IMG/VR virus record: IMGVR_UViG_3300030090_003995
Coordinates: 1-64,000 of that record
Strand: one strand, 5' to 3'
DNA length: 64,000 bases
Origin: a virus
In this document: piece after piece, positions 7,470 through 46,011 of the stretch
Layout: every line of letters starts with the position of its first letter
Numbering within the stretch: position 1 is the stretch's first letter
Notes under the pieces: generated by a model
Told to the model about the DNA's origin: nothing
What the model saw: only the letters and a program-made list of their open reading frames with translations
The model's database searches: none
Made by a program: the position numbers and the translations under genes

Positions 7470-7613
7470 ATGACGAATTGGAACGATATACTTAAACAAG
7501 ATAAATTAGGCATACCTAAAGATGTTGCAAAAGCAATATTAATGCGACTTTTAAAAGAAGAGAATTTTGAAGGTATGAAGCAATTATTAAATGAAAGGGA
7601 AATTGGTCATTAA
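7470..7613 (+). CDS. W-tag protein, 47 residues, first late gene
   Basis: MTNWNDILKQDK carries the N-terminal W-x-x-I-L-K tag shared by about 25 proteins of this operon, here with one extra residue before Trp. The rest (DVAKAILMRLLKEENFEG...) is a short helical domain. The stop TAA is at 7611-7613. Too short to assign; its reality rests on the tag and its position at the head of the operon. Confidence 0.75.
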   Translation: MTNWNDILKQDKLGIPKDVAKAILMRLLKEENFEGMKQLLNEREIGH

Positions 7614-7647
7614 AAAATTTGCCCCAAAAATTTTCGGAGGTTTTTTC

Positions 7648-7971
7648 ATGTGGGAAGTTGTTCTTAAGAAAAAGAGTAAAGTCAATATGAATGTATTACG
7701 AGAATCAGTTGATGAAGTACTAAATAAATATGATAATCCGACTCATATTAGAGTAGCATCCTTTCATGGTAGAGTTTTTCCAATCTATATAGCAAAAATG
7801 AGACAAATGGGTAGTAGAGCCAGAAAAGTAAAATCTTTAAAATCTATTTTGGGTAGAATTTTACAGACTAAAGGATGGGTTAAATCACAATTTATGGAAA
7901 GTAAGAGTGATTTCCTATTAGATACCCCAGTAAAGATTAGTGATTATTGGTATACTAAATACGGTGATTAA
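7648..7971 (+). CDS. W-tag protein, possible winged helix
   Basis: 107 residues. The start ATG 7648 gives MWEVVLKKK, a shortened version of the tag, with CGGAGG 8 bases upstream; the frame extending to 7591 overlaps the previous gene and is rejected. After the tag, helices and SLKSILGRILQTKGW resemble SSILSQMLQNRGY in the 45733 product, suggesting both carry the same small DNA-binding-like fold. Confidence 0.85.
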   Translation: MWEVVLKKKSKVNMNVLRESVDEVLNKYDNPTHIRVASFHGRVFPIYIAKMRQMGSRARKVKSLKSILGRILQTKGWVKSQFMESKSDFLLDTPVKISDYWYTKYGD

Positions 7972-7972
7972 T

Positions 7973-8239
7973 ATGTGGAAAGATGTGCTTAAAGGTCAAA
8001 GGATAACAATGGGTGCTATTAGGCAAGTATATAATGCGTTAGATGAGAACCCTAGAACAATAAAGGAAATATCAGAAGATATAGGAGTGCATTTTAATAC
8101 GGTTATGTTTTCTTTAAGAAAAATAATGGCTAGAGACCATATATATCCGGGTGTTAGGAAAAAAGTTTCTAGTATATATAGGGAAGGAAAGCCCGAAGAA
8201 TATACAAGATATGCTTATTATATAGGTGAGTTAAAATGA
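7973..8239 (+). CDS. W-tag protein with helix-turn-helix
   Basis: 88 residues: tag MWKDVLKGQ, then a helix-turn-helix of the RTIKEISEDIGVHFNTVMFS type (about residues 28-50), the pattern of an ArsR/MarR-like winged helix. It might regulate late transcription or, given the tag, be packaged with DNA. The start codon follows the previous stop by one base, with GGTGAT as ribosome-binding site. Confidence 0.85.
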   Translation: MWKDVLKGQRITMGAIRQVYNALDENPRTIKEISEDIGVHFNTVMFSLRKIMARDHIYPGVRKKVSSIYREGKPEEYTRYAYYIGELK

Positions 8240-8448
8240 GTTGGAAAAATATTATCAAAAGTAGTGATAAAATTAAAATTGATAAATACTTCAAGGAGAC
8301 AAAACAAGGTTTATATGATATGTTACTTCCAACATGGGAGGAAGACCCGAATTTACTAAAAAAGCATATTGAAACAATGTTTGCAGAATTAATGAAAATG
8401 GTATTAGGTGGAACAGCAGAAGAACAATATCATGATTATAAATATTAA
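8236..8448 (+). CDS. W-tag protein, 70 residues
   Basis: Tag MSWKNIIKSS, then a short helical region with no recognised family. The start overlaps the upstream stop by four bases (ATGA). Confidence 0.8.
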   Translation: MSWKNIIKSSDKIKIDKYFKETKQGLYDMLLPTWEEDPNLLKKHIETMFAELMKMVLGGTAEEQYHDYKY

Positions 8449-8458
8449 GGGGAATAAT

Positions 8459-8821
8459 ATGCGTTGGGAAACTATATTAAAAAATGTTAGCCCTGCTACT
8501 CTACTTGCAAGGACTACACAATTAAATGATTCAAAGGCCACAGGTAGAAGTGAAGTTATAAGAATTATGAAAGATAATCGTGATAGAATTGGTAATGATT
8601 ATCCCACACTTGACCATCTTAAAGAGGCTCTGAAAAATTATTATCAAGAATTATATTTAACTAAGACTGAAGAGTGGTTTAATCAAGCGACTTGGATGCA
8701 GAACACATTAAATGATGCTGGATATACTTATAATGATGTAAATTGGGAAGAGGCGTTAATTCCAGTGCTTAATGTTTATGATGAAATTATTGATTCTATT
8801 GAATATGGTGATTTGCAATGA
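8459..8821 (+). CDS. W-tag protein, 120 residues
   Basis: Tag MRWETILKNV. ATG 8459 (AAGGGG upstream) is used rather than the overlapping longer frame from 8408. The body is helical and acidic towards the end, unrecognised. Confidence 0.85.
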   Translation: MRWETILKNVSPATLLARTTQLNDSKATGRSEVIRIMKDNRDRIGNDYPTLDHLKEALKNYYQELYLTKTEEWFNQATWMQNTLNDAGYTYNDVNWEEALIPVLNVYDEIIDSIEYGDLQ

Positions 8822-10191
8822 CTTGGGAATATGTGTTAAAAGCGCCTTGGGTGCAAAATATTGATTTTAAAGCGCATGATGCGCCAAGAATTGGTAGATA
8901 CATAAAGTATTTAGAAAATTTACTTGATGAAAACAATAGAAATAGTTTTAAACGTTGGTGGTCTATGGGTTCAATTAAAACTGGGCCTAGACCTGAAGGT
9001 AGTTATTTTGATTCTTCTGACATATACGGGAAATTTTCAATTCGTCGTTATCCTCCCCTTAGTGAAAAACATGGACAAACGCCCACTAGTTACGAAGATG
9101 TAGTTAATGAATATAGAATTACTTGGCCTAAATTTTTAAAACGACAAACACCGGAAAAAAAAGCAACATACCCAAAAGAGTGGACACCAGAACAAGACCC
9201 CCGTTGGCAACAATTTGAATATAGAACTTCCGATTTACCCGCAAGTGGCGTATTACATATGAAAGCGTATTATGACAGAAATAAAGACATAGATTCTAAT
9301 ATGGATATAGTGTATGAAAAAGAATTTGAGGATGACCCAGATAGTGCTTTAGAAAAGGCGGATAATGAATTCAAAGAGTTAATTGATGATTTAGAACAAC
9401 TAACTACTGATTTACGTAAGCGATATATTGCATACAGAACTGATTCTTACAAAACAGCCCAAAAGTTTACTTTGGAAGAGATTCTCGGTGAAATGGTAAG
9501 AGATGGGATAGTACCTCCTTCTGGCGTAAAAAATTCTAGAGGTGATTATTATACTGTATCAGAAAGTCATCACGGTGTAACTATAAATTTATATCCACAT
9601 TGGCTACCAAGAACAACAAGGTTTGAAGGTGGTAAAGTAGGAAATGTGACTCATTTAAGAGTAAGGGCAAACCCTTCACAGGGGCCGGGAGATTTTGCAT
9701 TATGTTACATGGATGGTAAAAAACAAATTGCGGAAACTTGTACATATAAGGCCGCATACGGAGATACTAGTTATGCAGATGCATTCTCTATGATAATTAG
9801 TGCAACGATGGAATTAGACGAACGAGGGTTTATGACAGCCACAGCATTACCCAATTGGGGAAATACTAGAGAATCCCAACGCACTCAAACAGGTAATATC
9901 AAAGAATGGCATTATTTACCAGTTGACTCATCATGGTATCAAAAAGGAATTACTTTAATTAAACGAACTTTGGAGAATTTGAAAAAAATAGGCCGTGAAT
10001 GGCATTCAGAACTTAGAGCAGTAGTATATACTCATGGCGGTCAAATGCCAAAAGAAGGGGAAAGGCTCACTGGTGAATGGGAAAGGGAAGATATTCTTGC
10101 ACAAAGAAAACCTAGAGTTAGACCGTGGTTTCAACATTTGAGTAGTGAGGAAATAAAACGACGTCTTATGGAAGAAGCAAAAAGGTTGTGA
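8818..10191 (+). CDS. W-tag protein, 457 residues
   Basis: Tag MTWEYVLKAP. Residues about 60-115 are Tyr/Pro rich, followed by a charged helical stretch and a beta-rich region (about 255-355) with HHGVTINLYPHWLP and PGDFALCYMDGKKQIAET. No known domain. The start overlaps the upstream stop as ATGA. Large, with a tag: probably a virion-associated protein, by inference only. Confidence 0.88.
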   Translation: MTWEYVLKAPWVQNIDFKAHDAPRIGRYIKYLENLLDENNRNSFKRWWSMGSIKTGPRPEGSYFDSSDIYGKFSIRRYPPLSEKHGQTPTSYEDVVNEYRITWPKFLKRQTPEKKATYPKEWTPEQDPRWQQFEYRTSDLPASGVLHMKAYYDRNKDIDSNMDIVYEKEFEDDPDSALEKADNEFKELIDDLEQLTTDLRKRYIAYRTDSYKTAQKFTLEEILGEMVRDGIVPPSGVKNSRGDYYTVSESHHGVTINLYPHWLPRTTRFEGGKVGNVTHLRVRANPSQGPGDFALCYMDGKKQIAETCTYKAAYGDTSYADAFSMIISATMELDERGFMTATALPNWGNTRESQRTQTGNIKEWHYLPVDSSWYQKGITLIKRTLENLKKIGREWHSELRAVVYTHGGQMPKEGERLTGEWEREDILAQRKPRVRPWFQHLSSEEIKRRLMEEAKRL

Positions 10192-10197
10192 AATTAA

Positions 10198-10827
10198 ATG
10201 GCTTGGCAAGATATATTAAAAAATCAAAGAAAGGTTAGGCAACCTAGAACATCAACAACAACTGTTGATGTTTCTGGTAGAAAAAGAAATTTGTTACCTA
10301 AGTGGGTTCTAAATAATACTACAAGTGAAATTAGTGCAGGAATTAGAGTACAATATAATACTTTACCAGAAATGTTTAGAATGAATAGTGATAAGGATAA
10401 GATGTTGTTGGCTGCTTGGTATTTAAGAAGTTACATTCCTAGAATACATGGTAGGTTTCAACGCAATCTTAGAGAAAAGAACCCATTTGCGAAAAAAGGC
10501 CCATCTATTGCACCAATGCAGGTAGTTCCTATTAAGAGCATGACAGGAAAATTATTAAGTTACGTATTAATAAAATATGAGAAAAAGTTTCCGAGAATTA
10601 ATTTTTTAAGAATTAAGGGTAAGGCTGCTGATTTCCCGAATCTTGAAGTTATGGATTTAGGAAATGGTAGCCCAGAACTTAATTGGGAAAATAATAATGA
10701 AGCAAAGGATTACTTTAGACAAGTCTTTGGTCCAGCAGAAGTAGGAGAAACTCCGCAACAACCAGAAACAAGAACTATTGGTGATACTGTTGATGAAGAA
10801 ACTAGAAGAACTATGGGAGGTAATTAA
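10198..10827 (+). CDS. W-tag protein, 209 residues
   Basis: Tag MAWQDILKNQ. Basic N-terminal half, then an alpha/beta segment (LLSYVLIKYEKKFPRINFLR) and an acidic, Pro-rich C-terminus. Unrecognised. Confidence 0.87.
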   Translation: MAWQDILKNQRKVRQPRTSTTTVDVSGRKRNLLPKWVLNNTTSEISAGIRVQYNTLPEMFRMNSDKDKMLLAAWYLRSYIPRIHGRFQRNLREKNPFAKKGPSIAPMQVVPIKSMTGKLLSYVLIKYEKKFPRINFLRIKGKAADFPNLEVMDLGNGSPELNWENNNEAKDYFRQVFGPAEVGETPQQPETRTIGDTVDEETRRTMGGN

Positions 10828-10828
10828 A

Positions 10829-11335: not shown

Positions 11336-11336
11336 A

Positions 11337-11723
11337 ATGAGTTGGGAAATCATACTAAAAGAAATGGTTTGCCCTAGAGCAACGCAAGATTTACAATTAA
11401 ACACTAAGAATAGAAATGCAGCAATTAAAGCAGAACATATTAAATATGGCCCACTCAATTTGTCAGACGAACAATATTGGGTAGACGCAGCAAAACATTG
11501 GAAAACAACTACTGAGGTCGCTAAAGATTCAAAATGTTCTAACTGTATTGCGTTTGATATTTCTCCTAGAATGGAAGAATGTATGCCACTCGAAGGAGAT
11601 TTAGGATATTGTTGGATGCACCACTTTAAGTGCCATAAAGATAGAACTTGTTATACTTGGGCCGCTGGTGGACCAATTGATGACGATAAGACTTCAAAAC
11701 AGAATCAAGAAAAGGGTGAGTAA
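11337..11723 (+). CDS. W-tag Cys-rich protein
   Basis: 128 residues: tag MSWEIILKEM, then CSNC (about 61-64), C at about 80, and GYCWMHHFKCHKDRTCYTW (about 88-106). Six or seven Cys and several His are suited to bind a metal or an Fe-S cluster. Similar GYCWMHxFKC motifs occur, as I recall, in uncharacterised marine phage proteins. Confidence 0.87.
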   Translation: MSWEIILKEMVCPRATQDLQLNTKNRNAAIKAEHIKYGPLNLSDEQYWVDAAKHWKTTTEVAKDSKCSNCIAFDISPRMEECMPLEGDLGYCWMHHFKCHKDRTCYTWAAGGPIDDDKTSKQNQEKGE

Positions 11724-13100
11724 ATGTCTTGGCAATCTATTCTTAAATCATATGACCTTGATGATTTTATTATTGTTAAGGAAAAGAAAAAGAAAGTGAC
11801 AGAGAAAAAGAAAAAAACTAAAGATACAATAAAATTACCCAATGGTGATGAAGCCGAGGTTGATTATGTTTCTGAGTTTGAAAATGTTGTGGATGCTTTA
11901 GAAGATTGGAAACAGAAAGTAGAAGACGTTTCAATTGATGATTTACGTATGACTGGTCGCGGGGCAAAACAAAATTTATCTGTTCAAAATTTATTTGAAG
12001 TTATTGATGAACACGTAACACAAAAAGCCAAAAGAGATGGTGTGGGTGATTATGGTCCCGGAGTTAAAGATATAATTGAAGAAATTAAAAAAGCAGTTGA
12101 GTCTAAAAATTTATTAGATGAAAAAAATTTACAAAATTTATCAGATTATACTGCAAACCTTAAAAAGGTAGGTAGACCTAAATCAAAAGTAAACCCTCAA
12201 AATATTGTTTTTACTGTTCCTGATACTGTTGGTAAAGATGGCGCAACAAGTTGGAAAAAAGTGTATGGCCATTATAGAACGCCTGAATATATTAAACATA
12301 GAAAGGCTAAAGGTAAAAAAGAAACTATTACAACTCCAGCAAAGGACTCTTGGTATAATAAAGAAATGGGAGTAGCAAAACCCCCTATGTGGCAAGTTTT
12401 ATTTGGAAAAAATGCTGGAGAAACAGAAGATATTCCGGGTATAAATAAGGGGTTATTGCCGTTATTAGAAGAGTTTGAAGATATTATTGGTGTCCCCGGA
12501 CCAATTGCAGTACTAAAAGATTATGAAATTAAAGGTGCTTTTGAGCGTAAGGCTATTGAGAAATCACCTTCTTTTATGAAAGCCTTAACTGAAGTATTAA
12601 GTGACCAAAGTTCATATAGAGATGCTACTGGTAGTAAACCTTTTGATAGATTATGGATTAATTATGCCGCAGTTAAAAGAGCATTACAAATAAAACCGAT
12701 TGACGTTATTGATGAGAAAGATTCAGATTTCATTTTAGAATTACAAGGGTTAAAAGAATTGAAAGATAATTATGAAATCGACTCATTTAGAATTACTAAT
12801 ATTTCACTTAGATTAATAAGAACTATTTTGAAAAATATTGAAGATAACCCAGTAATCGCTACTGATAATTTCTTAGACACTCATCCACACGGAACAAACC
12901 TTAAAGGTATTTTTCTTGAAAAACCTATTAATAGGTTGAATGATAGAAAGGAATTGTGGGATGATGAAATTAAAAGGTTAAAGGGAGAAAATAAAGAAAT
13001 TCCCCCTTGGGCAAGACCACCAGATATGCCGCCTGAAAGTGGAAGTGATGAAAAGAAAATGCTTAAGTCTCATTGGACAGATTATTTAAGGAGGTATTAA
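11724..13100 (+). CDS. W-tag protein, 458 residues
   Basis: Tag MSWQSILKSY, then a Lys-rich linker (EKKKKVTEKKKKTKD, about 22-36) and a mostly helical body. Start and previous stop are directly adjacent. The composition (basic linker plus helices) would suit DNA contact inside a capsid; no family recognised. Confidence 0.88.
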   Translation: MSWQSILKSYDLDDFIIVKEKKKKVTEKKKKTKDTIKLPNGDEAEVDYVSEFENVVDALEDWKQKVEDVSIDDLRMTGRGAKQNLSVQNLFEVIDEHVTQKAKRDGVGDYGPGVKDIIEEIKKAVESKNLLDEKNLQNLSDYTANLKKVGRPKSKVNPQNIVFTVPDTVGKDGATSWKKVYGHYRTPEYIKHRKAKGKKETITTPAKDSWYNKEMGVAKPPMWQVLFGKNAGETEDIPGINKGLLPLLEEFEDIIGVPGPIAVLKDYEIKGAFERKAIEKSPSFMKALTEVLSDQSSYRDATGSKPFDRLWINYAAVKRALQIKPIDVIDEKDSDFILELQGLKELKDNYEIDSFRITNISLRLIRTILKNIEDNPVIATDNFLDTHPHGTNLKGIFLEKPINRLNDRKELWDDEIKRLKGENKEIPPWARPPDMPPESGSDEKKMLKSHWTDYLRRY

Positions 13101-13101
13101 T

Positions 13102-13826: not shown

Positions 13827-13966
13827 TGTTCAATTGGGATTATTGGAACGCGCAACTTGAAGGATATAAAAATATAAATAAAAAGAAAATTTGGCGCGAC
13901 CATAAGAACGAACATAAAGATATAATAGATAAAATTTATGAGTGGTATTGGGGTGATGAACAATGA
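13826..13966 (+). CDS. 46-residue hypothetical protein
   Basis: MFNWDYWNAQLEGYKNINKK then a charged, Trp-rich end. Overlapping start and stop signals on both sides (TAATG, ATGA). Unknown function. Confidence 0.65.
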   Translation: MFNWDYWNAQLEGYKNINKKKIWRDHKNEHKDIIDKIYEWYWGDEQ

Positions 13967-14280
13967 GTTGGAAAAATACACTTCAAAAGGGAACAGCAAC
14001 CGCTACTCGTAGTGCAGAACTATGGTCTTTAAACGATAATGACTTTTATGACCATATAAATAATTGGATTAAAGAACGTGTTTTTGAACATAAGGACCAT
14101 ATTGAAATTTTTCAAGAGTTAGTTCAATATTTACCAGAGGCTATGGCACATTTAGATGGTTTTATGGAAGAGTTAGTAGAAGGAAACCCATCAGACAGTA
14201 TTTCAGATGTTGATTGGGAAGAAGTAGCAGAAGGTTATAGACCGGAAATTGAGCAAATGTTAGAAGATTTTGGAGGGTGA
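13963..14280 (+). CDS. W-tag protein, 105 residues
   Basis: Tag variant MSWKNTLQKG (Leu-Gln in place of Leu-Lys). Acidic helical body ending in MLEDFGG. ATGA overlap with the upstream gene. Confidence 0.85.
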   Translation: MSWKNTLQKGTATATRSAELWSLNDNDFYDHINNWIKERVFEHKDHIEIFQELVQYLPEAMAHLDGFMEELVEGNPSDSISDVDWEEVAEGYRPEIEQMLEDFGG

Positions 14281-14285
14281 CTAAT

Positions 14286-15323
14286 ATGAGTTGGAAAGAT
14301 ATTGTAAAGGCAAAAACTGGTTCTAAACGTGGTGGGTCTAAACCCGATAGAAAAAAGGTACTAACTAAACCTAAAGGTTCTGGAACTCTACATGAAGATA
14401 TTAAGGCATTTAAGGAAGGTAAACTTGAAGGTACTGGCCCGTTTGATGAGAAATTATCACCTGAAGAAATTGAAGAAATGAAAGAATTCTATGCACTTTA
14501 TCCCGAATTAGACGAATATGGATTCACAAATGTTCTTGAAAATCCACAATGGGTTAAAGATTTAAAAAAGCCTGATAAACCATATACTGTGGCACATCAT
14601 CTTAATCCAGAACATGATTTCCTTATTAGGGACTTACAGCAAAAAATGGTCAATCACCTTGAAACGCTTTTTTTAGAATTTAATTTGTTTTTAGGAAGTA
14701 GTGGTTTTGAGACCTCAAGACGTGACCCTGAAAATGACCCACACTTTCCGAAAATACCAATAAAACGCGAAGGTAGATTTCAACAGCTTAAATCTTTTAG
14801 TAATTTATTTCCATTATATTCTAAATTAATTAAGCAGTTAACTTGGGATGATAATTGGGAGAAAGAAGCAAATTCAGAAGGGTTTGATGTTTCAAAAAAT
14901 ATTTTGTGGGGCGTTAAAACTATACATTATGATGTAAAAGAAAGAACGGGTGCTAATGTTCGTCATCGGACTAGAGAAAGGTCAAGTGCGTTTGAATATG
15001 AAAGTGAACCAGCAGGGCAACCAAGTATGGTTCATGTATTAGTATTTATGCGAGGCACAATAGATTTTGAAAATTTAAATTATAAATTCTATACTTTAAA
15101 GTATACTACTGGTATGGAAAGAGATATAATACCATCAGGTAAAGTTGCACAAGGCCGTAGGGAATCGGATTACCGAGAAATTAGTGATGAAAATTATAGG
15201 GCATATTATAGGCATATGTTAAATGCTGCCGAAACTGATGTGTTAACAATAAGTGGTGAGGAACCTGATTCTACTATTATTAATAAATTACGGAGTTTCT
15301 TTGGTTATTATTTGAGGTTGTGA
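14286..15323 (+). CDS. W-tag protein, 345 residues
   Basis: Tag MSWKDIVKAK, basic Gly/Lys linker, then an unrecognised body with a beta-rich part around 215-290. ATG 14286 is chosen, with GGAGGGTGA upstream, over GTG 14277, because it places the tag at the N-terminus as in the other members. Confidence 0.87.
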   Translation: MSWKDIVKAKTGSKRGGSKPDRKKVLTKPKGSGTLHEDIKAFKEGKLEGTGPFDEKLSPEEIEEMKEFYALYPELDEYGFTNVLENPQWVKDLKKPDKPYTVAHHLNPEHDFLIRDLQQKMVNHLETLFLEFNLFLGSSGFETSRRDPENDPHFPKIPIKREGRFQQLKSFSNLFPLYSKLIKQLTWDDNWEKEANSEGFDVSKNILWGVKTIHYDVKERTGANVRHRTRERSSAFEYESEPAGQPSMVHVLVFMRGTIDFENLNYKFYTLKYTTGMERDIIPSGKVAQGRRESDYREISDENYRAYYRHMLNAAETDVLTISGEEPDSTIINKLRSFFGYYLRL

Positions 15324-15327: not shown

Positions 15328-17340
15328 ATTAGTTGGGGTCTCATTCTTAAAAGTGTTAGTTTTCCCGGAAAAGGAAAAACGCCGGCTTGGTTAACATTAT
15401 TGGGATATGAAGGTGGTGTTCTTGAAGTATGGATGGATAAGGCAAAAAAGGTTTTAGAGAAAGATGATAGCCCACCTAATTTTTCAACATTTATTAGATT
15501 ACTTAGAGATACTGAGCCTGAATATGCTGCTCAACAGTTACTTCAGTTACAAGACTTTTCAATAGCCGAAAGAAATAGACTCGACGATTTGGCTGAAGAA
15601 AATTTGGCAAAACTTCAGGAAGGGTTTAAAGAATATACTGAACAAAAAGAGGTTAAAGGTATTGCTGAGACTTCACAAAATAGAAGACAAGCAACAATTG
15701 AATTATTTCAACAGGCATCTAAATATATTGAAGCAGAAAGGGAAGTGGATTGGGAAGAAATAGATAAGGAAATTAGCCAAATTACTGATAAAAGAACTTT
15801 AGTTTCTATACTTGAGGCTTTAGGTGATGATGTTAATTTTAATATTGCTACTAACATTCCAGATAAAGGGTTTGAGAATTTAAAGGCGTTTTATAACAAG
15901 TATAGTTTTGGTGAAGGTTATCAAAAAAATTATAACGTTAATAATATCACTAATGAATTAGCATTAGTATATCTTACTGAAATTCAAGAACCAATTGTTC
16001 TTTCTGGAAAACGGCAGTTTGGAGATTTTGCTCAAAGAGGGTTCCTTGCAAATCCTGATAAACCTAATGTTGCTCGAAATCGGCCACCTGCTAAACCATT
16101 TAAAGTGAAGGGTCTACCTAAAATCCAAACAACAAAAGGTCGAAAGAAAAGATTTACTGATTTATTTTTATCGCTTTTTAAGGGTGATTTATCAGAACAA
16201 GAAAATATCACTAATCAATTAGCACAGAATTTAAAAAGTAGAGCGGTCAATAGACAGGCAGTATTAGATGTTGTTTCAGATATTGCGTTTAAAATTAACC
16301 AAGAAATGGTAACTATTGATGAGGCTAATAGAATGTCCGGTTTAAATTTTAATGTTATAGCAGACTTAATTCCTAGTACTAGGGTTGGAGATAAGGAAGA
16401 GTTTATTAAGGATTTTAAAAATACATTATTTTCTAATGGTGCTAAAGGGCAAAGAGATATGACTAGACAGTTTGAAAATAAAATGACACAGTATAGGGCT
16501 GGTGTTCCTAAACTATTTAAAGATTTTATTACTGATTTAATTAGTAAACCCAATGTTTATGAAGATGTTTTTAATTCAATTTATACTAATTCTTATTTAA
16601 AATTTAGACAAGATAGCGATTTAGGTGGGTTTATACAAATGGGAACTATGCCCGGAAAAAGTGGTAAAAGAGTTGCCAGTTGGAAAATACAACCTAATGT
16701 TCCAAACTCAAGAAAGTTAACAAAATTATATGAGTGGCTTGTCAATAGAAATCAATCAATATTAAACGATGCTAATGATAAAGAAAAATCTGGGTTAAGA
16801 GCATTAAGAAAACTTTATCGTAATTTTAGAAGAGATAATGTTGAGGACACTGAAGAAGAATTATTTGGTAATTTATTGAATATAAGTGTTAAAGATGAGT
16901 CTGACTTTTTACGTACTTTTACTGACCCCTTTGAAAAATCCATCGCTAGTTTATTTATAGAAGTTAAAGATGGCACAGTTAATTTAGAAGATTTAACCTC
17001 TACATATAATGTTAGTTTAGATAAGACTATTAATACTGTAGATTTGATTCAAGAACTTCATGAAACTGAACGGGTTGTGGGTGGTTCTAATATAACAAAT
17101 TTATTGACAAAAAAATATCCAGAGCAAATTACTCCTGAAATTACTGATGAACAATTAGCAGGTGTGGTTAGAAGTTTTATTTTAGATTTGAATAAAGTAG
17201 TCAAGAAAATCGTGGTCACAGTTAGGAAATTAATTGAAGAAAAACTTCAATTAATGGCTAATAATCAAGGTAAATATTTACCATTAAATAATGCTATATT
17301 TATTATTTTAGAAGGTAAGGGTTTAATTACGGAAGTGTAA
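15328..17340 (+). CDS. W-tag protein with ATT start codon, 670 residues
   Basis: The open frame has no ATG, GTG or TTG before TTG 15400, but upstream in frame lies ATT AGT TGG GGT CTC ATT CTT AAA (15328-15351), i.e. the tag I/M-S-W-G-L-I-L-K. An in-frame TGA at 15313-15315 limits the extension. I therefore call AUU initiation at 15328 (or an ATG mutated to ATT). The protein is long, helical and unrecognised; residues about 230-280 are very basic. Length and tag suggest an internal virion protein. Confidence 0.82.
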   Translation: MSWGLILKSVSFPGKGKTPAWLTLLGYEGGVLEVWMDKAKKVLEKDDSPPNFSTFIRLLRDTEPEYAAQQLLQLQDFSIAERNRLDDLAEENLAKLQEGFKEYTEQKEVKGIAETSQNRRQATIELFQQASKYIEAEREVDWEEIDKEISQITDKRTLVSILEALGDDVNFNIATNIPDKGFENLKAFYNKYSFGEGYQKNYNVNNITNELALVYLTEIQEPIVLSGKRQFGDFAQRGFLANPDKPNVARNRPPAKPFKVKGLPKIQTTKGRKKRFTDLFLSLFKGDLSEQENITNQLAQNLKSRAVNRQAVLDVVSDIAFKINQEMVTIDEANRMSGLNFNVIADLIPSTRVGDKEEFIKDFKNTLFSNGAKGQRDMTRQFENKMTQYRAGVPKLFKDFITDLISKPNVYEDVFNSIYTNSYLKFRQDSDLGGFIQMGTMPGKSGKRVASWKIQPNVPNSRKLTKLYEWLVNRNQSILNDANDKEKSGLRALRKLYRNFRRDNVEDTEEELFGNLLNISVKDESDFLRTFTDPFEKSIASLFIEVKDGTVNLEDLTSTYNVSLDKTINTVDLIQELHETERVVGGSNITNLLTKKYPEQITPEITDEQLAGVVRSFILDLNKVVKKIVVTVRKLIEEKLQLMANNQGKYLPLNNAIFIILEGKGLITEV

Positions 17341-30266: not shown

Positions 30267-30595
30267 CGTGGTTTGAAGTAATTAAAGAAGATAGTCCGGC
30301 TTTGGCTAGTCTATCACAAAAAGAAAAAAAGAAACTCAAAAAGGTTTTGCAAGCAGCCGAACCTTCAGAATACTTTGGTCAAGACTTTACAAGAATGGGA
30401 GAATTGATTGAATTAATGAGAGAATTAGATTTGGTTAAGGGAGATAAAAAAATGCAAAAGAAAATGAAATCTATTTCTGAGCAAAATGTAGATGTTGTCG
30501 CTATGGCTGCTAAATTGCGAAAAGAATATGAAGAAATGTATAGACAACTTCGACAAATTGTATATCCTAAAAGCAAGGGGTTGAGAAAGAAATGA
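30263..30595 (+). CDS. W-tag protein, 110 residues
   Basis: Tag MTWFEVIKED; all-helical, charged. ATGA overlaps with both neighbours. Unrecognised. Confidence 0.87.
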   Translation: MTWFEVIKEDSPALASLSQKEKKKLKKVLQAAEPSEYFGQDFTRMGELIELMRELDLVKGDKKMQKKMKSISEQNVDVVAMAAKLRKEYEEMYRQLRQIVYPKSKGLRKK

Positions 30596-30855
30596 GTTGG
30601 GAAAATATAATTAAAATGAGAAGAATTATTCCTGAAGTAGAGGAAGTCATGCCCTATTATAATGGGTTAGATGAATTACTCACTATGGTTAAAAAAGATA
30701 TGGAAGAAGTTGTAAGTTTTATTATGAATGATGATTTAGAAAGGGCCGAAATTAAGTGGGATAAAATGAAAGGAGGCATTCTCGATTTAGAAGGAACCTT
30801 TACTGGAATTAAAGACGTTAATGCGTTTATTACTAGATTATTAGGTGATGCTTAA
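30592..30855 (+). CDS. W-tag protein, 87 residues
   Basis: Tag MSWENIIKMR; helical. Starts inside the previous stop and ends inside the next start (TAATG). Unrecognised. Confidence 0.86.
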   Translation: MSWENIIKMRRIIPEVEEVMPYYNGLDELLTMVKKDMEEVVSFIMNDDLERAEIKWDKMKGGILDLEGTFTGIKDVNAFITRLLGDA

Positions 30856-31758: not shown

Positions 31759-31763
31759 TTAGT

Positions 31764-34355: not shown

Positions 34356-35693
34356 ATGGCGAGCGCAACGCTTCAACAAAGTGCGACAATTAGAACAAAT
34401 AATCCTTCTGATTTTCAAATAATTAAATCTGATGATTTATACATTGGTGGATATGCTTCTATTGAATTAGTAGATAAGCAAAACGATTTAATTACATTAG
34501 AAGCATTAAATGATGCTGTTAAAAAATTCATGCAAGCACCAAGATACAGAAACGTTATGAATAATCATTCAAATGTTCAAGTTGGTGAAGTAGTCAAAGA
34601 ATATCGAGATAAGACAGGAAAATTATGGAAAACTGATGTTGATGATGTTGGTTTTTTTGTTGTAATAAAATTAAGAGATGATATTGAGAAGGCTAAAGAA
34701 GTTAGTCGGGACATTAGAAAAGGTACTCTTCGTTCTTTCAGCATTGGGGGTCAAGCACTCGAAAAGCGTAAACGAGAGAATGATGAATTAGGAAAGTTTA
34801 ATGAAATTAGTAAATTGGAATTGCATGAAGTAACTATTTGTGAAAAAGGCATTAATCCAGAAGCAAAATTTGATATTCTAAAACAAGACAGTGGTGATAA
34901 CATGACCGAAGTTACAAAAGCGTTAGAAGAACTAAACTCTCTCTTAAAAGAAATTAGAGGAGAAAGTGTATCAAAAGCCCCTAATCCAAAATCGGAAGAG
35001 GGATTTGAAATGCAAGAATTACCGGAAGGTGAAGAAAAAATGACAAGTGAATATTTAGACACTGAAGAAGAAACTGAAGAATCACCTGAAATGCTAGAAA
35101 TGGCAGAAGGTGAAGAAGAGGAAATGATGGAATTAGCCTCAAGCGAAGAAGATGACCCTGAAAAGGAATTAAAGAGCAAAACAAGCCATACCCATGAAAC
35201 ACAATTAGTGGATGAGGCTGGTCTAGAAGTTGTAGTGGGTGGACAACCTTCAACAAAACATGGACAGCGTAAAGATATGGGGATTCCTGCCGGAACTGAA
35301 ACCAAAAAGTCCATTTATGGTGGAGATACACCAACACTCGATTTGAGTCCTGAGAATCTTGAAAAGGCTTATGCTGAATTTAAGGCTGAGCAAATGGAAA
35401 AAATGGCTTACAATGATATTAAGTCGTCTTTCCAAGCACGATTCGATGCTGAAGTTGCAGCAAAAGCAGATTCAATCGAGAAGGCAAACTATGACCCACG
35501 AAGTGAGGTCAACGAACTTAAAAAGCAGTTTAGTGAGTTAATTGACACACTAAAGGGTGAGAAGGAAAATGTTATCCGAAAGCAACAAGAGGCTGTTGAT
35601 AACCTAAACATTCCTTCAGGTGATGATTTGGCTAAGATGGATTGGAATGAAGTCCATTTGGCTATGGCTCGACTAGAGCGCAATTTCCGCTGA
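34356..35693 (+). CDS. Prohead protease (XkdF-like) fused to scaffold
   Basis: 445 residues. About 20-180 is a HK97/XkdF-type serine protease: GGYASIELVDKQNDLI, NNHSN (His71), then RSFSIGG (candidate Ser127/Ser129) and ELHEVTICEKGINPEA. About 190-445 is acidic, helical and disordered, as in scaffolds that form the procapsid core and are digested. It ends DLAKMDWNEVHLAMARLERN. Lies directly before the major capsid gene, as usual. Cleavage sites are not predictable from here. Confidence 0.92.
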   Translation: MASATLQQSATIRTNNPSDFQIIKSDDLYIGGYASIELVDKQNDLITLEALNDAVKKFMQAPRYRNVMNNHSNVQVGEVVKEYRDKTGKLWKTDVDDVGFFVVIKLRDDIEKAKEVSRDIRKGTLRSFSIGGQALEKRKRENDELGKFNEISKLELHEVTICEKGINPEAKFDILKQDSGDNMTEVTKALEELNSLLKEIRGESVSKAPNPKSEEGFEMQELPEGEEKMTSEYLDTEEETEESPEMLEMAEGEEEEMMELASSEEDDPEKELKSKTSHTHETQLVDEAGLEVVVGGQPSTKHGQRKDMGIPAGTETKKSIYGGDTPTLDLSPENLEKAYAEFKAEQMEKMAYNDIKSSFQARFDAEVAAKADSIEKANYDPRSEVNELKKQFSELIDTLKGEKENVIRKQQEAVDNLNIPSGDDLAKMDWNEVHLAMARLERNFR

Positions 35694-35721: not shown

Positions 35722-37086
35722 ATGGTAAAATATATTAACACTATCGCTGACCTTGAACAAGCCACTTACGGTACGTTTGGTGGAAATAGCGACATTCTGA
35801 AAAGTGGTGGGTCTTTACTCGGACTTCACACAGCACACGATACAAACGCAACAAACGCATTTGTTGGAACTGCGGCTTCAAACCTCAGTAACTTGTATAA
35901 CGTAATTTATGGACAGAAAGTTTGGTCAATGCTCAATCAAGAGATTAACCCACTTTCTATTCTTCCTAAGCGACCATACACTTCAAGCGGTTGGCGCGTA
36001 TTAATTGACCGACCTGCTGGTGGAAGTGCTGCGGCTTTTGCGATTGGAACGCAAGATATTACTGCAACTCCAACTGCTGATATGAGCGCACCTTCAGCCG
36101 ATAGTATCGGTGGTGTGAAAGAAAACCACGCTTTGAATAGTGTTGGACTTTCTGAACTATCTCCAGAATATGCGACCTTATTTATGAGTCCTAAGACTGT
36201 TGCGCATATGTTCGGTTATTCCGAAGTTGCAGCAGAAATGGCGAAAATTGATGATGGTATCGGTGATATTCGTAACATTGTTCGTGAAGATATGGGTAAA
36301 TTCCACGCTGAGGTTCAGTCCAAAATGCTTGTAATGCCTCTTGAAAATTACGACCACTCAAGTTATGCAGATATTGAATTAAACTACACTTCATTATTGA
36401 AGATTGTAGCAAGTAGTCAAGAAATGGAGGCTATGATTGATGCAGGTATGCACGGTTCAATGGGTGGTTCTTCATCAACAGGCGGTTTAGTAGACCAAAT
36501 GAGTTATTTGTATGGAAACAATTCTCGTGATTTGGTTGCAAATGCTTACAATGAATCATATATGGATGCTTATGTCAATTATGGTAGTGGATATGCTGCT
36601 GGCGATGTTCGAGCATTAACTCTAACTTTGCTTAATACTACTTTGCAGAACCTCCGAACAAACGGTGGTACGCCAAAGTGTATCTTAACTGGATATGATA
36701 CAATTCAAGCAATTGCTGATTTGTTACAGTCCCAAGAACGATTTATGGAGCGAAAAGAAATTGTTCCTACACATAATGGTGTTCGTGGTGTAAAGGGCCG
36801 AGAAGTCGGTTTCCGAGTAGCGACATATTTCGATATTCCGCTAATTCCATGTAAAGATATGGCAAGCACAGGTGAAGCAACAGGTAAACTAAGCGATTTA
36901 TTGTTCTTAGACACTGACCATCTTTGGATGGCTGTAATGAAACCAACTCAATACTTTGAGGATGGTATTAATTCTGGAAACCCATTCGGTGTTGGCGCAC
37001 TTGGAAACAAGGCCATGTTCCGAACAATGGGCGAAACTGGCTGTACTTTCTTTAAGGGACAAGGCAAGATTACTAACGTGAACTGA
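35722..37086 (+). CDS. Major capsid protein (HK97-fold candidate)
   Basis: 454 residues. Position directly after the protease/scaffold, length, and Gly/Ala/Thr-rich composition identify it. Segments consistent with the HK97 fold are ILPKRPYTSSGWRVLIDRPA and LFLDTDHLWMAVMKPTQYFE near the C-terminus. Ribosome-binding site AGGTGATTAAAAATG is optimal, and the gene uses more C-ending codons than its neighbours, as expected for the most abundant protein. The fold itself cannot be proven from sequence here. Confidence 0.9.
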   Translation: MVKYINTIADLEQATYGTFGGNSDILKSGGSLLGLHTAHDTNATNAFVGTAASNLSNLYNVIYGQKVWSMLNQEINPLSILPKRPYTSSGWRVLIDRPAGGSAAAFAIGTQDITATPTADMSAPSADSIGGVKENHALNSVGLSELSPEYATLFMSPKTVAHMFGYSEVAAEMAKIDDGIGDIRNIVREDMGKFHAEVQSKMLVMPLENYDHSSYADIELNYTSLLKIVASSQEMEAMIDAGMHGSMGGSSSTGGLVDQMSYLYGNNSRDLVANAYNESYMDAYVNYGSGYAAGDVRALTLTLLNTTLQNLRTNGGTPKCILTGYDTIQAIADLLQSQERFMERKEIVPTHNGVRGVKGREVGFRVATYFDIPLIPCKDMASTGEATGKLSDLLFLDTDHLWMAVMKPTQYFEDGINSGNPFGVGALGNKAMFRTMGETGCTFFKGQGKITNVN

Positions 37087-38680: not shown

Positions 38681-38893
38681 GTGCTTTTAGACTTATTTGG
38701 TTTAGATGAAACGTCTGTTGCTTATGATATGACAAGAGCGCATTCTGCTGATATATTATTTCTAAAAATGAGAGCAATTATGTGGTGTATAACAACAGGT
38801 GTTGGGGCATTATTAATTGGTAATATATGTGGAGTATTTGGAATTAATTTCTTTGGTATGACTTGGGAATGGTTAACAGGGTTGTGGCATTAA
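38681..38893 (+). CDS. Small membrane protein, 70 residues
   Basis: Start GTG 38681. One hydrophobic span, about 33-58 (AIMWCITTGVGALLIGNICG), preceded by a soluble N-terminus. Paired with the preceding two-span protein. Its stop overlaps the next start (TAATG). Confidence 0.75.
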   Translation: MLLDLFGLDETSVAYDMTRAHSADILFLKMRAIMWCITTGVGALLIGNICGVFGINFFGMTWEWLTGLWH

Positions 38894-39249
38894 TGAGTTG
38901 GCAAGATATTTTAAAGAATGATGAAAGAAACCCTAAATTTAGGGAAGGAGATGAATTGGAGGGCTATTGGATTAGTGATTATATTAGTGATTATATTTTT
39001 GAGGGAAATAAATTACGCTCGGGTAATAGTTGGTGGGAAGAAGCCGCTGGTGAAGATTACTTGGATAAGTTATTAAAAGAATTCATAGAAAGTGGTGAAG
39101 AATATACTAAAGAAGCAGTAGATAAATGGTTGGAGAAAAATATAAGTCAAGAAGAATTTAATAGAATGGCTAAAGAAATTAGAGATGATGATTACGGCCC
39201 AGACTATGAAGATTTTGGACCGGTTGAAGGATATAAAGATTATTATTAG
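38893..39249 (+). CDS. W-tag protein, 118 residues
   Basis: Tag MSWQDILKND, then acidic sequence with the direct repeat WISDYISDYIFE. Start at the TAATG overlap; the longer frame from 38863 is rejected. Unrecognised. Confidence 0.86.
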   Translation: MSWQDILKNDERNPKFREGDELEGYWISDYISDYIFEGNKLRSGNSWWEEAAGEDYLDKLLKEFIESGEEYTKEAVDKWLEKNISQEEFNRMAKEIRDDDYGPDYEDFGPVEGYKDYY

Positions 39250-39258
39250 GTGATTAAA

Positions 39259-39432
39259 ATGAGTTGGTTTGATACATTAAAAATGCACTGTGGAACTAAA
39301 CAGAAAGTAGATGATGATTTTGAAAAAACAAAAGGAATTGCTAGACAGTTACGGCCTGATTTCAAACCTGATTTTAAAGAAAAAGATACCAAAAAGTACG
39401 GAATTAAACATCAAATACGTAGAGGTCAATAG
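39259..39432 (+). CDS. W-tag protein, 57 residues
   Basis: Tag MSWFDTLKMH, then a short basic segment. ATG 39259 after AGGTGATTAAA. Unrecognised. Confidence 0.82.
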   Translation: MSWFDTLKMHCGTKQKVDDDFEKTKGIARQLRPDFKPDFKEKDTKKYGIKHQIRRGQ

Positions 39433-39442
39433 GTGATTTCAT

Positions 39443-40111: not shown

Positions 40112-40121
40112 GGTGATTAAA

Positions 40122-40385
40122 ATGAGTTGGCAAGATATATTAAAGGATGATGCAAAATGGGGCAGAATCCATCAACATCTAAAAGATAAATTAGAAGAAT
40201 ATAAACGTGACTACCCGTCTGCAAACACTTTAAGTTTTAATAAATTTGACGAAATTTATGAAGATATTATACAGGCGGCTATTGAGGATGAACAACGTCT
40301 ACAAAAATTGGCTAAATATGCAGGATTTAGTCATTTTAATCCTCAACATCAAGGAAAAAGTGATGTGGTGGCGTTTTACTATTAG
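40122..40385 (+). CDS. W-tag protein, 87 residues
   Basis: Tag MSWQDILKDD; helical body. ATG 40122 with AGGTGATTAAA; the frame extending to 40098 overlaps the GTPase gene. Unrecognised. Confidence 0.86.
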   Translation: MSWQDILKDDAKWGRIHQHLKDKLEEYKRDYPSANTLSFNKFDEIYEDIIQAAIEDEQRLQKLAKYAGFSHFNPQHQGKSDVVAFYY

Positions 40386-40394
40386 GTGATTAAT

Positions 40395-40586
40395 ATGAGT
40401 TGGGATGATATATTAAAATTAGAAACTCCCCTACAAAAACCATTGAATGAAGCGTTAAGATTGTTAGAACCAACCACGCGCTATGAGATGGATGAAAGCA
40501 AGCAACAATACCAAGATTTAAGGAATGCTATTACTAAATTTTTAGAATGGGAACAAACGTTTCTACTGAGCCAAAGAAATAGGTGA
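40395..40586 (+). CDS. W-tag protein, 63 residues
   Basis: Tag MSWDDILKLE; short helical protein. ATG 40395 with AGGTGATTAAT. Unrecognised. Confidence 0.84.
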   Translation: MSWDDILKLETPLQKPLNEALRLLEPTTRYEMDESKQQYQDLRNAITKFLEWEQTFLLSQRNR

Positions 40587-40591
40587 TTAAA

Positions 40592-41149
40592 ATGGGTTGG
40601 GAAGATATTCTAAAATTAAGATACAAGCCACCGAAAAAATTTGGATACGAAAGTGATGCAGATTTCAAGAGAAGATTGGCAGCATACGACCGAAAATATC
40701 AAAGTGACAAAAGTAGAGGTGTTTTAGGAACAAGAGAAGAAATTGAAGCCGATGAGCAACGTAAGAAAGATAAATTTGCTCAAAATCAAAAAGAATTAGA
40801 GGAATCATCAATTGATTGGAATAAAGCACTAAACACTATGGTTTTGCTAGAAAAAGAAGTAAAACGTAGATTTGAACCGAGAGGTAATGACCCCGGAGAA
40901 AGGATGTTACAAAATGTATTTATAAATGCGGCTAATAAACCAATGCGAGAATTAGCAGATATTTACCTCGCTCAACCTAAAGGTTCAGAAGGCGGAATAA
41001 AAGAATGGAATAGAGCAAGAAGGTATCTTGCTCAAGTTTTACTTGACCCTCGATATGTTGGTCTGTTAAATAATTTAAGATTAGCGCGTGATGATGAGTC
41101 ATTAGAAAGGTTTCTTGAAAATAATGGGTTTGGAGATGGTTCTGAATGA
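40592..41149 (+). CDS. W-tag protein, 185 residues
   Basis: Tag MGWEDILKLR (Gly at position 2), then a basic region and a helical body. The leader AGGTGATTAAA before ATG 40592 is identical to those of 40122 and 39259, and the three tags are nearly identical, which suggests local duplication of leader plus tag. Confidence 0.86.
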   Translation: MGWEDILKLRYKPPKKFGYESDADFKRRLAAYDRKYQSDKSRGVLGTREEIEADEQRKKDKFAQNQKELEESSIDWNKALNTMVLLEKEVKRRFEPRGNDPGERMLQNVFINAANKPMRELADIYLAQPKGSEGGIKEWNRARRYLAQVLLDPRYVGLLNNLRLARDDESLERFLENNGFGDGSE

Positions 41150-42442: not shown

Positions 42443-42456
42443 GGGGGTAAAATTGG

Positions 42457-44226: not shown

Positions 44227-44228
44227 TA

Positions 44229-45323
44229 ATGGTTAAGTTATCATCACCATCTGACTATACGGCAGTAAATCCTAACTATGCTATTGGGCAAGGGTATTAC
44301 ACTAACGAAGATAAAATAGCAGATTTACTACAAATACCATCTTTCTCCGCCACGACCAATCCATCTTACGACCAAGTGGGCGACATTATTAAGGATGTAG
44401 AAGACGAAATAGATGAAAAAACCGGAATGTCGTTTAGACCAATCATTTACGCGAATGAGATGCACAATTTTCGTAGTCCAACGGGCGGGTCTTTGCGAAA
44501 GTGGCCCTCATGGTGGTCAGACTACGTTGGTTTTTGCCAACTAAACCACAGACATATCCGCAAAATGATTAGAATAGAAGTTTGGCAGGGAAATAGGTGG
44601 ACAGACCTTTGTTCGGCAACTGCAAAGGTTAGCGTGTCTAATGACCAAGTTGGTTCTAGCGGTTCTATTACACTAACATTACCTAATAACGTAACATTCG
44701 TTTTAAATAAAGGAACGACAAATAGCCAATACAATAATGCCTATGGTGCTAAAACTATTGCTCAAGAAATTTGTCATTTAATAAATGAAACCTTTCCTTC
44801 AATAACTGCTAGATTTACAGGTGCTACTGCTTCTAAATCTTTAGTGGGTTCAGATGGAACTAATGTTTCTGATTTCTTTTATGCTACTGTAAATACAGAA
44901 GATGAAACTGAAGTTATAATTTCTTCATTATTACCCGGCGATGATGGGTCACAATGTTCTATTGCAGTAACAGGTTCGGGTTTAACTAAAAGCGATTTTA
45001 CAGATAATGAAGAAATGAAACGTCTTGGTACATGGTGGAAAGTAGATGAAGAAGGCCGTATTTTCTTTAGAACCAAATTTCCTTATATGGAAAAAAATTC
45101 AATTCGTATGACTTATATTGCAGGTAATCCTAGAGTTCCCGGAATTATTTCTCAAGCAGCAACAAAAATGTCAGCGATGGAAATTTTACGGCATGATGAC
45201 CAAACAGTGTTAATTGCAGAATCAGGTTCACAAATTGATATTAAAACTAAATACGACTTGTTAAAACAAGAAGCCGCAGAATTATTGAAACTTACAAGAG
45301 AAACTATCTTTTTGATTGAGTGA
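44229..45323 (+). CDS. Head-tail connector candidate
   Basis: 364 residues. N-terminal VGDIIKDVEDEIDEKTGM and the C-terminal helices (AAELLKLTRETIF) resemble HK97 gp6-type adaptor proteins. A beta-rich insertion of about 130 residues (VSVSNDQVGSSGSITLTLPN ... SLLPGDDGSQCSIAV) makes it much longer than the usual 100-200. Its position between head and tail genes fits. Confidence 0.7.
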   Translation: MVKLSSPSDYTAVNPNYAIGQGYYTNEDKIADLLQIPSFSATTNPSYDQVGDIIKDVEDEIDEKTGMSFRPIIYANEMHNFRSPTGGSLRKWPSWWSDYVGFCQLNHRHIRKMIRIEVWQGNRWTDLCSATAKVSVSNDQVGSSGSITLTLPNNVTFVLNKGTTNSQYNNAYGAKTIAQEICHLINETFPSITARFTGATASKSLVGSDGTNVSDFFYATVNTEDETEVIISSLLPGDDGSQCSIAVTGSGLTKSDFTDNEEMKRLGTWWKVDEEGRIFFRTKFPYMEKNSIRMTYIAGNPRVPGIISQAATKMSAMEILRHDDQTVLIAESGSQIDIKTKYDLLKQEAAELLKLTRETIFLIE

Positions 45324-45328
45324 TTAAT

Positions 45329-45733
45329 ATGTCATGGACTAATATTCTAAAAAATGAGTCTCATTTTATTTGGAATGCAGATATATTTTCTTGGTCTGAT
45401 AAGCACAAAGAGTGGCTTGAAAGTTTAGATTGGGGTCAAATTAGACAATACAAAACAGGATTTCCAATTTGGCAGATAGAAAAACACTTCAATTCTCAAA
45501 TTACTGACTTAAAGGGAATTATGGATAAGGCATGGGAAGCCCTTTCAGAAAATCTTGAAGATAAAAAAGAGTTACAGCAATTAAGTGATAGTTTAGGTAA
45601 TCAATATCAAGAGATGATAACAGGGATTCTTAATCATGCTAATGATGCATTTAGACAAATAGCAGGAATTCAATATGATTTGGCAAGTCAAGATGAAGCA
45701 ACAGGAGCAGTTAAACTAAAGTGGGTGGAATAA
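45329..45733 (+). CDS. W-tag protein, 134 residues
   Basis: Tag MSWTNILKNE, helical body with Trp-rich segment (WSDKHKEWLESLDWGQIR). ATG 45329 after GTGATTAAT. Unrecognised. Confidence 0.86.
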   Translation: MSWTNILKNESHFIWNADIFSWSDKHKEWLESLDWGQIRQYKTGFPIWQIEKHFNSQITDLKGIMDKAWEALSENLEDKKELQQLSDSLGNQYQEMITGILNHANDAFRQIAGIQYDLASQDEATGAVKLKWVE

Positions 45734-46011
45734 TGACGTGGGATACTGTTCTTAAAGTTAGAAGAAAAATAAATATGCCTCATTTAAAAAGAATTGTAGA
45801 CCATATTTTACCAAACATGGTTGAAGATGAATTTGCGTTATCAGATTTAGCAAAAATGGTTACAACGACTTATTTAGAATATAATCCTAATACTAAACGG
45901 GCGTTAAATATATCCTCTATTTTAAGTCAAATGTTACAAAATAGAGGATATGAGCAGTTTTATAAATATTCTAAGGGTCAACGTTTAACTTATTATAGGA
46001 AAGTGCAATAA
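45733..46011 (+). CDS. W-tag protein, 92 residues, possible winged helix
   Basis: Tag MTWDTVLKVR, then a helical domain whose NISSILSQMLQNRGYEQF and final beta segment parallel SLKSILGRILQTKGW in the 7648 product. TAATG overlaps on both sides. It is the last tagged gene of the operon. Confidence 0.85.
   Translation: MTWDTVLKVRRKINMPHLKRIVDHILPNMVEDEFALSDLAKMVTTTYLEYNPNTKRALNISSILSQMLQNRGYEQFYKYSKGQRLTYYRKVQ

What the first reader, a model, noticed from the sequence alone, without database searches (positions are those of the whole stretch)
7470..46011. A shared N-terminal W-x-x-I-L-K peptide on about 25 unrelated late proteins
Seen: after start correction, proteins at 7470, 7648, 7973, 8236, 8459, 8818, 10198, 11337, 11724, 13963, 14286, 15328, 23355, 23783, 25867, 29913, 30263, 30592, 38893, 39259, 40122, 40395, 40592, 45329 and 45733 begin with variants such as MSWQDILK, MSWKNIIK, MTWEYVLK, MWKDVLK. 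The bodies that follow are different (HTH, Cys-rich, helical, 47 to 670 residues). Terminase, portal, capsid, protease, GTPase and tail proteins lack it. Known parallel: T4 internal proteins and Alt share a roughly 10-residue N-terminal capsid-targeting leader removed by the prohead protease. Inference: this is a capsid-targeting tag and the tagged set is a large packaged protein cargo.
Basis: partly seen in the sequence, partly recalled or inferred. Interest (0 to 1): 0.92.

Follow-up and report, generated by a model that had tools for sequence, protein, structure and literature searches.

The report
Shared address tag on viral cargo
A large group of uncultured marine viruses of archaea puts the same eight-residue leader (about M-S-W-x-D-I-L-K) on dozens of otherwise unrelated proteins; it is probably an address label that loads them into the forming virus head for delivery with the DNA, like the short head-targeting leader of phage T4 but on a far larger scale and in a different kind of virus.

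Summary
All 25 listed starts carry W-x-x-[IVLT]-[LIT]-K or a close variant (21 strict of 64 late-strand proteins; residue-shuffling gives 0.05, maximum 2). One start is an ATT codon. The tag is lineage-wide: 36 of 36 large tagged IMG/VR contigs tested carry this virus's capsid protein, terminase or DNA polymerase, so it marks the magroviruses (Magrovirales, predicted hosts Poseidoniales). About 670 tagged proteins fall into 353 unrelated body clusters. They lie on the late strand only, mostly upstream of or among the head genes. The tag is not enriched in cellular genomes or in the closest characterised relatives. Homologues in tag-free phages lack it. Tandem arrays keep a near-invariant 31-residue leader on bodies that barely align; a CCA-adding enzyme and a PAP2 phosphatase bear the tag. 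Its end, [ILM][LIM]K, recurs in a variable linker near the N-terminus of every major capsid protein examined (95 of 95). Best reading: an N-terminal head-targeting propeptide, working like T4's capsid-targeting sequence, possibly ending at the prohead-protease site. Virion location, cleavage and delivery are inferred, not shown. I found no description of it in the papers searched.

The parts
7470..7613 (+). tagged protein, 47 aa, MTNWNDILK
7648..7971 (+). tagged protein, 107 aa, MWEVVLK
7973..8239 (+). tagged protein, 88 aa, MWKDVLK; weak HTH match (PF13542, E 0.005)
8236..8448 (+). tagged protein, 70 aa, MSWKNIIK
8459..8821 (+). tagged protein, 120 aa, MRWETILK
8818..10191 (+). tagged protein, 457 aa, MTWEYVLK; no Pfam match
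10198..10827 (+). tagged protein, 209 aa, MAWQDILK
11337..11723 (+). tagged Cys-rich protein of the family annotated 'high potential iron-sulfur protein' in phages, MSWEIILK; tagged in all 13 clustered magrovirus copies, untagged in bacterial phages
11724..13100 (+). tagged protein, 458 aa, MSWQSILK
13963..14280 (+). tag variant, 105 aa, MSWKNTLQ
14286..15323 (+). tagged protein, 345 aa, MSWKDIVK
15328..17340 (+). tagged protein, 670 aa, ISWGLILK, ATT start codon; L022 homologue (31% identity) starts MSWQILLK
23355..23780 (+). tagged Cys/Lys-rich protein, 141 aa, MWFDLLK
23783..24052 (+). tag variant, 89 aa basic protein, MEEWFNTLK
25867..26310 (+). tagged protein, 147 aa, MSWFDILK, directly after portal
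29913..30266 (+). tagged protein, 117 aa, MSWKKILK
30263..30595 (+). tagged helical protein, 110 aa, MTWFEVIK; a relative lies between portal and protease in all five long genomes; all 65 distinct homologue N-termini recovered have W at residue 2-4 (start choice favoured W), some with a split tag
30592..30855 (+). tagged protein, 87 aa, MSWENIIK
34356..35693 (+). prohead protease (Peptidase_S78), untagged; candidate for cutting the tag
35722..37086 (+). major capsid protein (SU10_MCP-like), untagged; D-I-L-K at residues 24-27 (35791-35802), an [ILM][LIM]K site kept in 95/95 relatives
38893..39249 (+). tagged protein, 118 aa, MSWQDILK
39259..39432 (+). tag variant, 57 aa, MSWFDTLKMHCGT
40122..40385 (+). 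tagged protein, 87 aa, MSWQDILK
40395..40586 (+). tagged protein, 63 aa, MSWDDILK
40592..41149 (+). tagged protein, 185 aa, MGWEDILK
45329..45733 (+). tagged protein, 134 aa, MSWTNILK
45733..46011 (+). tagged protein, 92 aa, MTWDTVLK

Best explanation
The tag is an N-terminal sorting signal of a magrovirus tailed virus that brings late-made, non-structural proteins into the assembling prohead, so that they are packaged with the genome and delivered to the next host cell. W3 and the hydrophobic pair I6-L7 would form a short docking motif for a partner inside the prohead (capsid protein, the C-terminal part of the protease protein, or another core protein). The end of the tag, [I/V/L]-[L/I]-K, may also be the site where the S78 prohead protease removes the leader, because the same kind of tripeptide sits in a variable linker about 25-29 residues into every capsid protein examined. 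Shown: the tag, its independence from the bodies, its lineage-wide presence, its confinement to the late strand, and constraint on the peptide rather than the DNA. Inferred: head location, docking partner, cleavage after K8, and delivery to the host.
For: (2) Not an effect of selection by tag: loci found through the capsid protein alone carry tags in 34 of 36 cases of at least 15 kb, 161 tags on the capsid-gene strand, 2 opposite, reversed-order control 2. (3) Modular: 672 tagged ORFs, 353 body clusters; 150 aligned representatives share only M-S-W-x-D-I-L-K; homologues in tag-free phages start at the body; a variable linker separates tag and body; a complete CCA-adding enzyme and a PAP2 phosphatase carry it. 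(4) Selected at protein level: silent sites of I6, L7 and K8 are used diversely and roughly as in the bodies. (5) Tandem arrays keep a 31-residue leader nearly invariant while bodies barely align. (6) Position: tags lie upstream of or among TerL-portal-MCP; in four of five long genomes none lies downstream of MCP. (7) A helical gene between portal and protease keeps a tag or tag variant in all 65 recovered homologue N-termini. (8) [ILM][LIM]K in 95/95 capsid N-termini with variable spacing on both sides, against 0.05 expected per 20 residues. (9) Precedent: in T4 the first 10 residues of IPIII suffice, targeting depends mainly on residues 4 and 7 and processing on 8 and 10 (PMC9026906); here W3 and I6 have the same spacing.
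Against: No virion proteome or measured N-terminus exists for these uncultured viruses. The tagged set is not generally basic (mean net charge +0.015 per residue, 27% basic, 26% acidic), unlike T4 internal proteins. Some conserved carriers have altered ends (TLQK, ELRK) or a tag split by about ten residues, so a strict cleavage site is not universal. The F-x-ILK in the protease N-terminus may just be the first strand of its fold (my judgement), and the LLK in the capsid protein may be structural. Structure prediction did not help (pLDDT 34 and 65). Eight of the window's tagged or tag-variant genes lie downstream of the capsid gene.
Confidence: 0.6

Rival explanations
1. The tag sends proteins to some other virus-made assembly (replication or packaging centre, terminase motor, tail) rather than the head interior; they act in the same cell and are not carried to the next one.
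For: Only a docking function follows from sequence. Many tags lie next to TerL, and two in the window lie among connector and tail genes (45329, 45733).
Against: Tagged genes sit with structural genes on the late strand and never with the replication module. The match to a motif in the capsid protein would be unexplained.
Confidence: 0.2
2. The tag is a handle for a chaperone or protease (for example the virus-coded GroEL), controlling folding or turnover of late proteins.
For: The virus codes for a Cpn60 chaperonin (PF00118, E 2e-43), and the tag is a short hydrophobic motif.
Against: G012 has 25 tags but no detectable relative of this GroEL. Large untagged late proteins lack it, and N-terminal position and fixed W-x-x-I-L-K spacing are more specific than chaperone binding needs.
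Confidence: 0.08
3. The shared start is a translation-initiation element, not a peptide signal.
For: AGT is strongly preferred at codon 2 (0.89 against 0.29 in bodies), and most starts have SD-like sequences.
Against: W3, I6, L7 and K8 are kept while the silent positions of I6, L7 and K8 vary roughly as in the bodies. Capsid and portal, expected to be abundant, lack it.
Confidence: 0.04
4. The shared N-terminus is a leftover of gene birth: small late genes were made by recombination at a common 5' end, with no function for the peptide.
For: Tandem arrays and fusions with internal tag remnants show that 5' ends have been copied and shuffled.
Against: Conservation of W, I/L and K across virus groups whose capsid proteins are often only 51-67% identical, with silent sites diversified, needs selection.
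Confidence: 0.03

Closest known systems
Phage T4 capsid-targeting sequence (CTS) of internal proteins and Alt
   Same: About 10-residue N-terminal leader on diverse proteins; key positions three residues apart (T4 4 and 7; here W3 and I6); related phages carry varied small proteins sharing only the leader (PMC9026906, PMC3012670).
   Different: No sequence match was tested or is claimed; 17-26 tagged genes in each long genome here; archaeal virus; S78-type prohead protease; bodies not generally basic.
Phage P1 Dar system (DarA, DarB and others)
   Same: Injected anti-restriction proteins enter the head; the N-terminal 30 residues of DarB suffice for packaging (PMC9024508).
   Different: P1 Dar N-termini show no consensus by BLAST (PMC9024508); here one tag is common to all.
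SPN3US / phiKZ-type ejection-protein propeptides
   Same: N-terminal propeptides of head proteins removed by the prohead protease; two diverged paralogues share an identical 15-residue N-terminus (PMC5694885).
   Different: Several propeptides are over 100 residues long, and there is no common tag over unrelated proteins.
Magrovirales (Aoguangviridae, Apasviridae)
   Same: 90-110 kb genomes, two oppositely transcribed modules, PolB in two parts, PCNA, RFC, TFB, GroEL/GroES (PMC10768690).
   Different: The magrovirus texts that could be read do not mention a shared N-terminal tag; two key papers were not held.

Membership tests
T4-type capsid-targeting sequence | short N-terminal leader shared by otherwise unrelated proteins | tested here: met
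   353 body clusters, common MSWxDILK
T4-type capsid-targeting sequence | bearers are inside the virion head and are injected | not testable with these tools
   no virion proteome; uncultured viruses
T4-type capsid-targeting sequence | leader removed by the prohead protease at a defined site | tested here: inconclusive
   tag ends in [IVL][LI]K, as does a floating motif in the capsid N-terminus; no measured N-terminus
T4-type capsid-targeting sequence | T4-type protease (gp21) and core (gp22) | tested here: not met
   protease matches Peptidase_S78 (PF04586, E 2e-9) and capsid SU10_MCP; that T4 gp21 is of another family is from general knowledge
T4-type capsid-targeting sequence | sequence homology with the T4 leader | not tested
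   T4 leader letters were not found in the papers searched; only spacing of key residues compared
Magrovirales | capsid protein, TerL or PolB shared with the tagged viral group | tested here: met
   36/36 large tagged contigs and 35 of 48 further records, mostly fragments, by TerL
Magrovirales | opposed replication and structural modules with split PolB, RFC, TFB, chaperonin | tested here: met
   (PF00136 in two ORFs, PF08542, PF00382, PF00118); PCNA assigned by eye and synteny, no Pfam match
Magrovirales | phylogenetic placement with named members | not tested
   OR863078, ON649702 and PP497040 not in the collections

The most novel reading that the evidence does not exclude
A whole order of archaeal viruses uses one universal, probably cleavable N-terminal address to load some 20 kinds of rapidly changing effector protein into the virion, including tandem arrays with a constant 31-residue leader and variable bodies: a protein-delivery system carried in the head of an archaeal virus, whose end motif is also the capsid maturation site.
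Probability: 0.35. Interest if true: 0.9.

Novelty: new variant of a known kind. Interest (0 to 1): 0.8.

Why it matters
If right, the many unknown genes of one of the commonest groups of marine archaeal viruses get a first functional assignment: head cargo, readable from sequence alone. It gives a simple rule for picking candidate effectors against archaeal cells, predicts the maturation site of the capsid protein, and offers a short tag to test for packaging foreign proteins into an archaeal-virus head. Even if the destination is wrong, a single conserved address on hundreds of unrelated viral proteins is a clear biological question that can be tested directly.

Tried and rejected
Chance or composition (shuffles, reversed patterns): rejected. 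Host feature (scan of 257 Gb of cellular genomes): rejected. Full-length homology: rejected. Feature of tailed archaeal viruses in general: HVTV-1, vir335, DSL-LC01 and two spring metagenome phages have no hit. Autocleavage site in the protease (F-x-ILK): considered, but it may be the first strand of the S78 fold, so not counted. Structure prediction of two tagged families gave low or middling confidence and no PDB match. Searches of 150 tagged representatives against Pfam, PHROGs, NCBIfam and PADLOC named few functions. Literature searches for the tag letters and for capsid targeting in archaeal viruses found nothing. Published magrovirus genomes could not be fetched by accession.

Full report
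WHAT WAS CLAIMED AND CHECKED. The window is bases 1-64,000 of an 87,979-base IMG/VR virus record. Late genes run on the + strand from about 7.4 to 63 kb; replication and transcription genes run on the - strand from 63 to 88 kb: PolB in two ORFs, an RFC small subunit, a TFIIB-type factor and a Cpn60 chaperonin have Pfam support, and a PCNA-like gene is assigned by eye and synteny only. This is the layout published for magroviruses, tailed viruses associated with marine Poseidoniales (PMC10768690; PMC12999244). All 25 listed starts carry the tag or a near variant. Of 64 late-strand proteins 21 fit the strict form; shuffling residues 2-12 gives 0.05 on average. The core occurs once inside these proteins and 21 times at their starts. 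One start, 15328, is an ATT codon behind a Shine-Dalgarno-like sequence.

HOW WIDESPREAD. In 36 large records a looser pattern gives 407 hits, 405 on the main strand of each genome, against 4 for its reversal. All 36 carry this virus's capsid protein, terminase or polymerase; capsid identity is 51-90%. Of 48 further records, most of them fragments, 35 have the terminase. Choosing loci by the capsid protein alone, without regard to the tag, 34 of 36 loci of at least 15 kb have tags, 161 on the capsid strand and 2 opposite. In cellular genomes the pattern gives 52 hits in 257 Gb, scattered over unrelated bacteria and archaea; the fetched loci hold six tag-like ORF starts in all, and none is titled as Poseidoniales. 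The tag is absent from HVTV-1, vir335 and DSL-LC01. It is a lineage-specific viral feature.

WHAT THE TAG IS ATTACHED TO. The 672 tagged ORFs form 353 body clusters, 269 of them single. A MAFFT alignment of 150 representatives has the consensus MSWxDILK and almost nothing after it. At positions not fixed by the search, residue 2 is S/T/N, 4 is E/K/Q/F and 5 is D/N/E (many of these contigs were found with a pattern that itself fixed D5 and I6-L7, so frequencies there are inflated). I6, L7 and K8 use their synonymous codons diversely, roughly as in the bodies, whereas codon 2 is mostly AGT. So the peptide is under selection. Homologues show modularity: a Cys-rich family is tagged in all 13 clustered magrovirus copies but starts without the tag in bacterial phages, and a basic family is tagged here but not in roseophages and cyanophages. 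A complete CCA-adding enzyme (L078:875-2122) and a PAP2 phosphatase (L122:4356-4925) have the tag in front of the catalytic domain. Fused genes keep the tag inside as a remnant (KKSWKDILKKDPKKGTG). In arrays of tandem genes (G009, G012/L042, L040/L113) the first 31 residues are nearly invariant within an array, for example MSWVDILKETITQGRVKEIEDIDIDIEDDDC, while most bodies no longer align to each other.

WHERE IT LIES. In five long genomes there are 17-26 tags by regular expression, all on the late strand, in the block leading to and around terminase and portal. Capsid, portal, protease, terminase and tail proteins are untagged. A 110-residue helical protein between portal and protease has W at residue 2-4 in all 65 distinct homologue N-termini recovered: 36 standard tags, 19 split or lengthened tags such as MTWDFYGEGKDFILKE, 10 altered tags (the start choice favoured W, so this is not independent evidence for W).

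LINK TO HEAD MATURATION. The capsid protein has a conserved N-terminal stretch (YINTIxDLExATYG), then a Gly-rich linker of varying length, then [ILM][LIM]K, then another linker of varying length. The tripeptide is present in 95 of 95 capsid N-termini with a clear anchor, although spacing to conserved motifs on both sides varies; the rest of the protein would give 0.05 per 20 residues. In the window it reads SDILK-S, like the end of the tag. A motif fixed in a variable linker fits a processing site. If the S78 protease cuts after it, tag and capsid propeptide are cut alike. This is inference; no N-terminus has been measured. The similar F-x-ILK in the protease was not counted, since it may be part of the fold.

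MECHANISM. Most likely W3 and I6-L7 dock tagged proteins to the prohead interior, and K8 marks the cut. T4 is the precedent: ten residues of IPIII suffice, residues 4 and 7 matter for targeting and 8 and 10 for processing, and T4-like phages vary the cargo behind a common leader (PMC9026906; PMC3012670). P1 DarB also enters the head by an N-terminal signal (PMC9024508). The system here works like these but is not shown to be a member: protease and capsid types differ and localisation is untested. The few recognisable bodies (CCA addition, phosphatase, weak helix-turn-helix matches, pentapeptide repeats) could act in a freshly infected cell, which fits delivery but does not prove it.

LIMITS. 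Viruses are uncultured. The records were found by a strict pattern, so counts are lower bounds. IMG/VR records may be fragments. The two structure predictions were weak. Two key magrovirus papers were not held, so novelty is judged from those that could be read and from word searches.

Noticed in passing
window 15328-17340: Probable ATT start codon on a 670-residue late protein, revealed by the tag (ISWGLILK) and by a homologue that starts with M.
   Followed up: partly
window 31755-34319: ATP-dependent DNA ligase (PF01068, E 1e-31) placed inside the head-gene block between portal and prohead protease, in the same place in all five long genomes.
   Followed up: partly
window 39443-40111: Small GTPase-like protein (Roc, E 2e-4) downstream of the capsid gene, 61-64% identical in G007, G009 and G022.
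   Followed up: no
L196:12476-15890, L042:2201-7966, L040:2792-6437: Tandem arrays of tagged genes with a constant 31-residue leader ending in an acidic stretch and Cys, and strongly diverged bodies; looks like a diversifying effector cassette.
   Followed up: partly
L079, L090, L121 and G009 minus strand: Fused proteins with an internal tag remnant (KKSWKDILKKDPKKGTG), showing joining of formerly separate tagged genes.
   Followed up: partly
L048 and L060: EF-hand-like loop (DKNKNGKLDAEDF) inserted between a tagged Cys-rich segment and the basic KKHPALKRAGVSGF domain.
   Followed up: no
G010 (IMGVR_UViG_3300021958_000021, 184,733 bp): Record holds two different capsid genes about 91 kb apart; probably two virus genomes joined in assembly.
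   Followed up: no
window 1-7400: No long + strand ORFs, higher G+C and negative GC skew; only scattered - strand ORFs up to 232 aa.
   Followed up: no
window 35722-35775: Capsid N-terminus YINTIxDLExATYG is strongly conserved ahead of the variable linker; possibly the part of a capsid propeptide that contacts the scaffold.
   Followed up: partly
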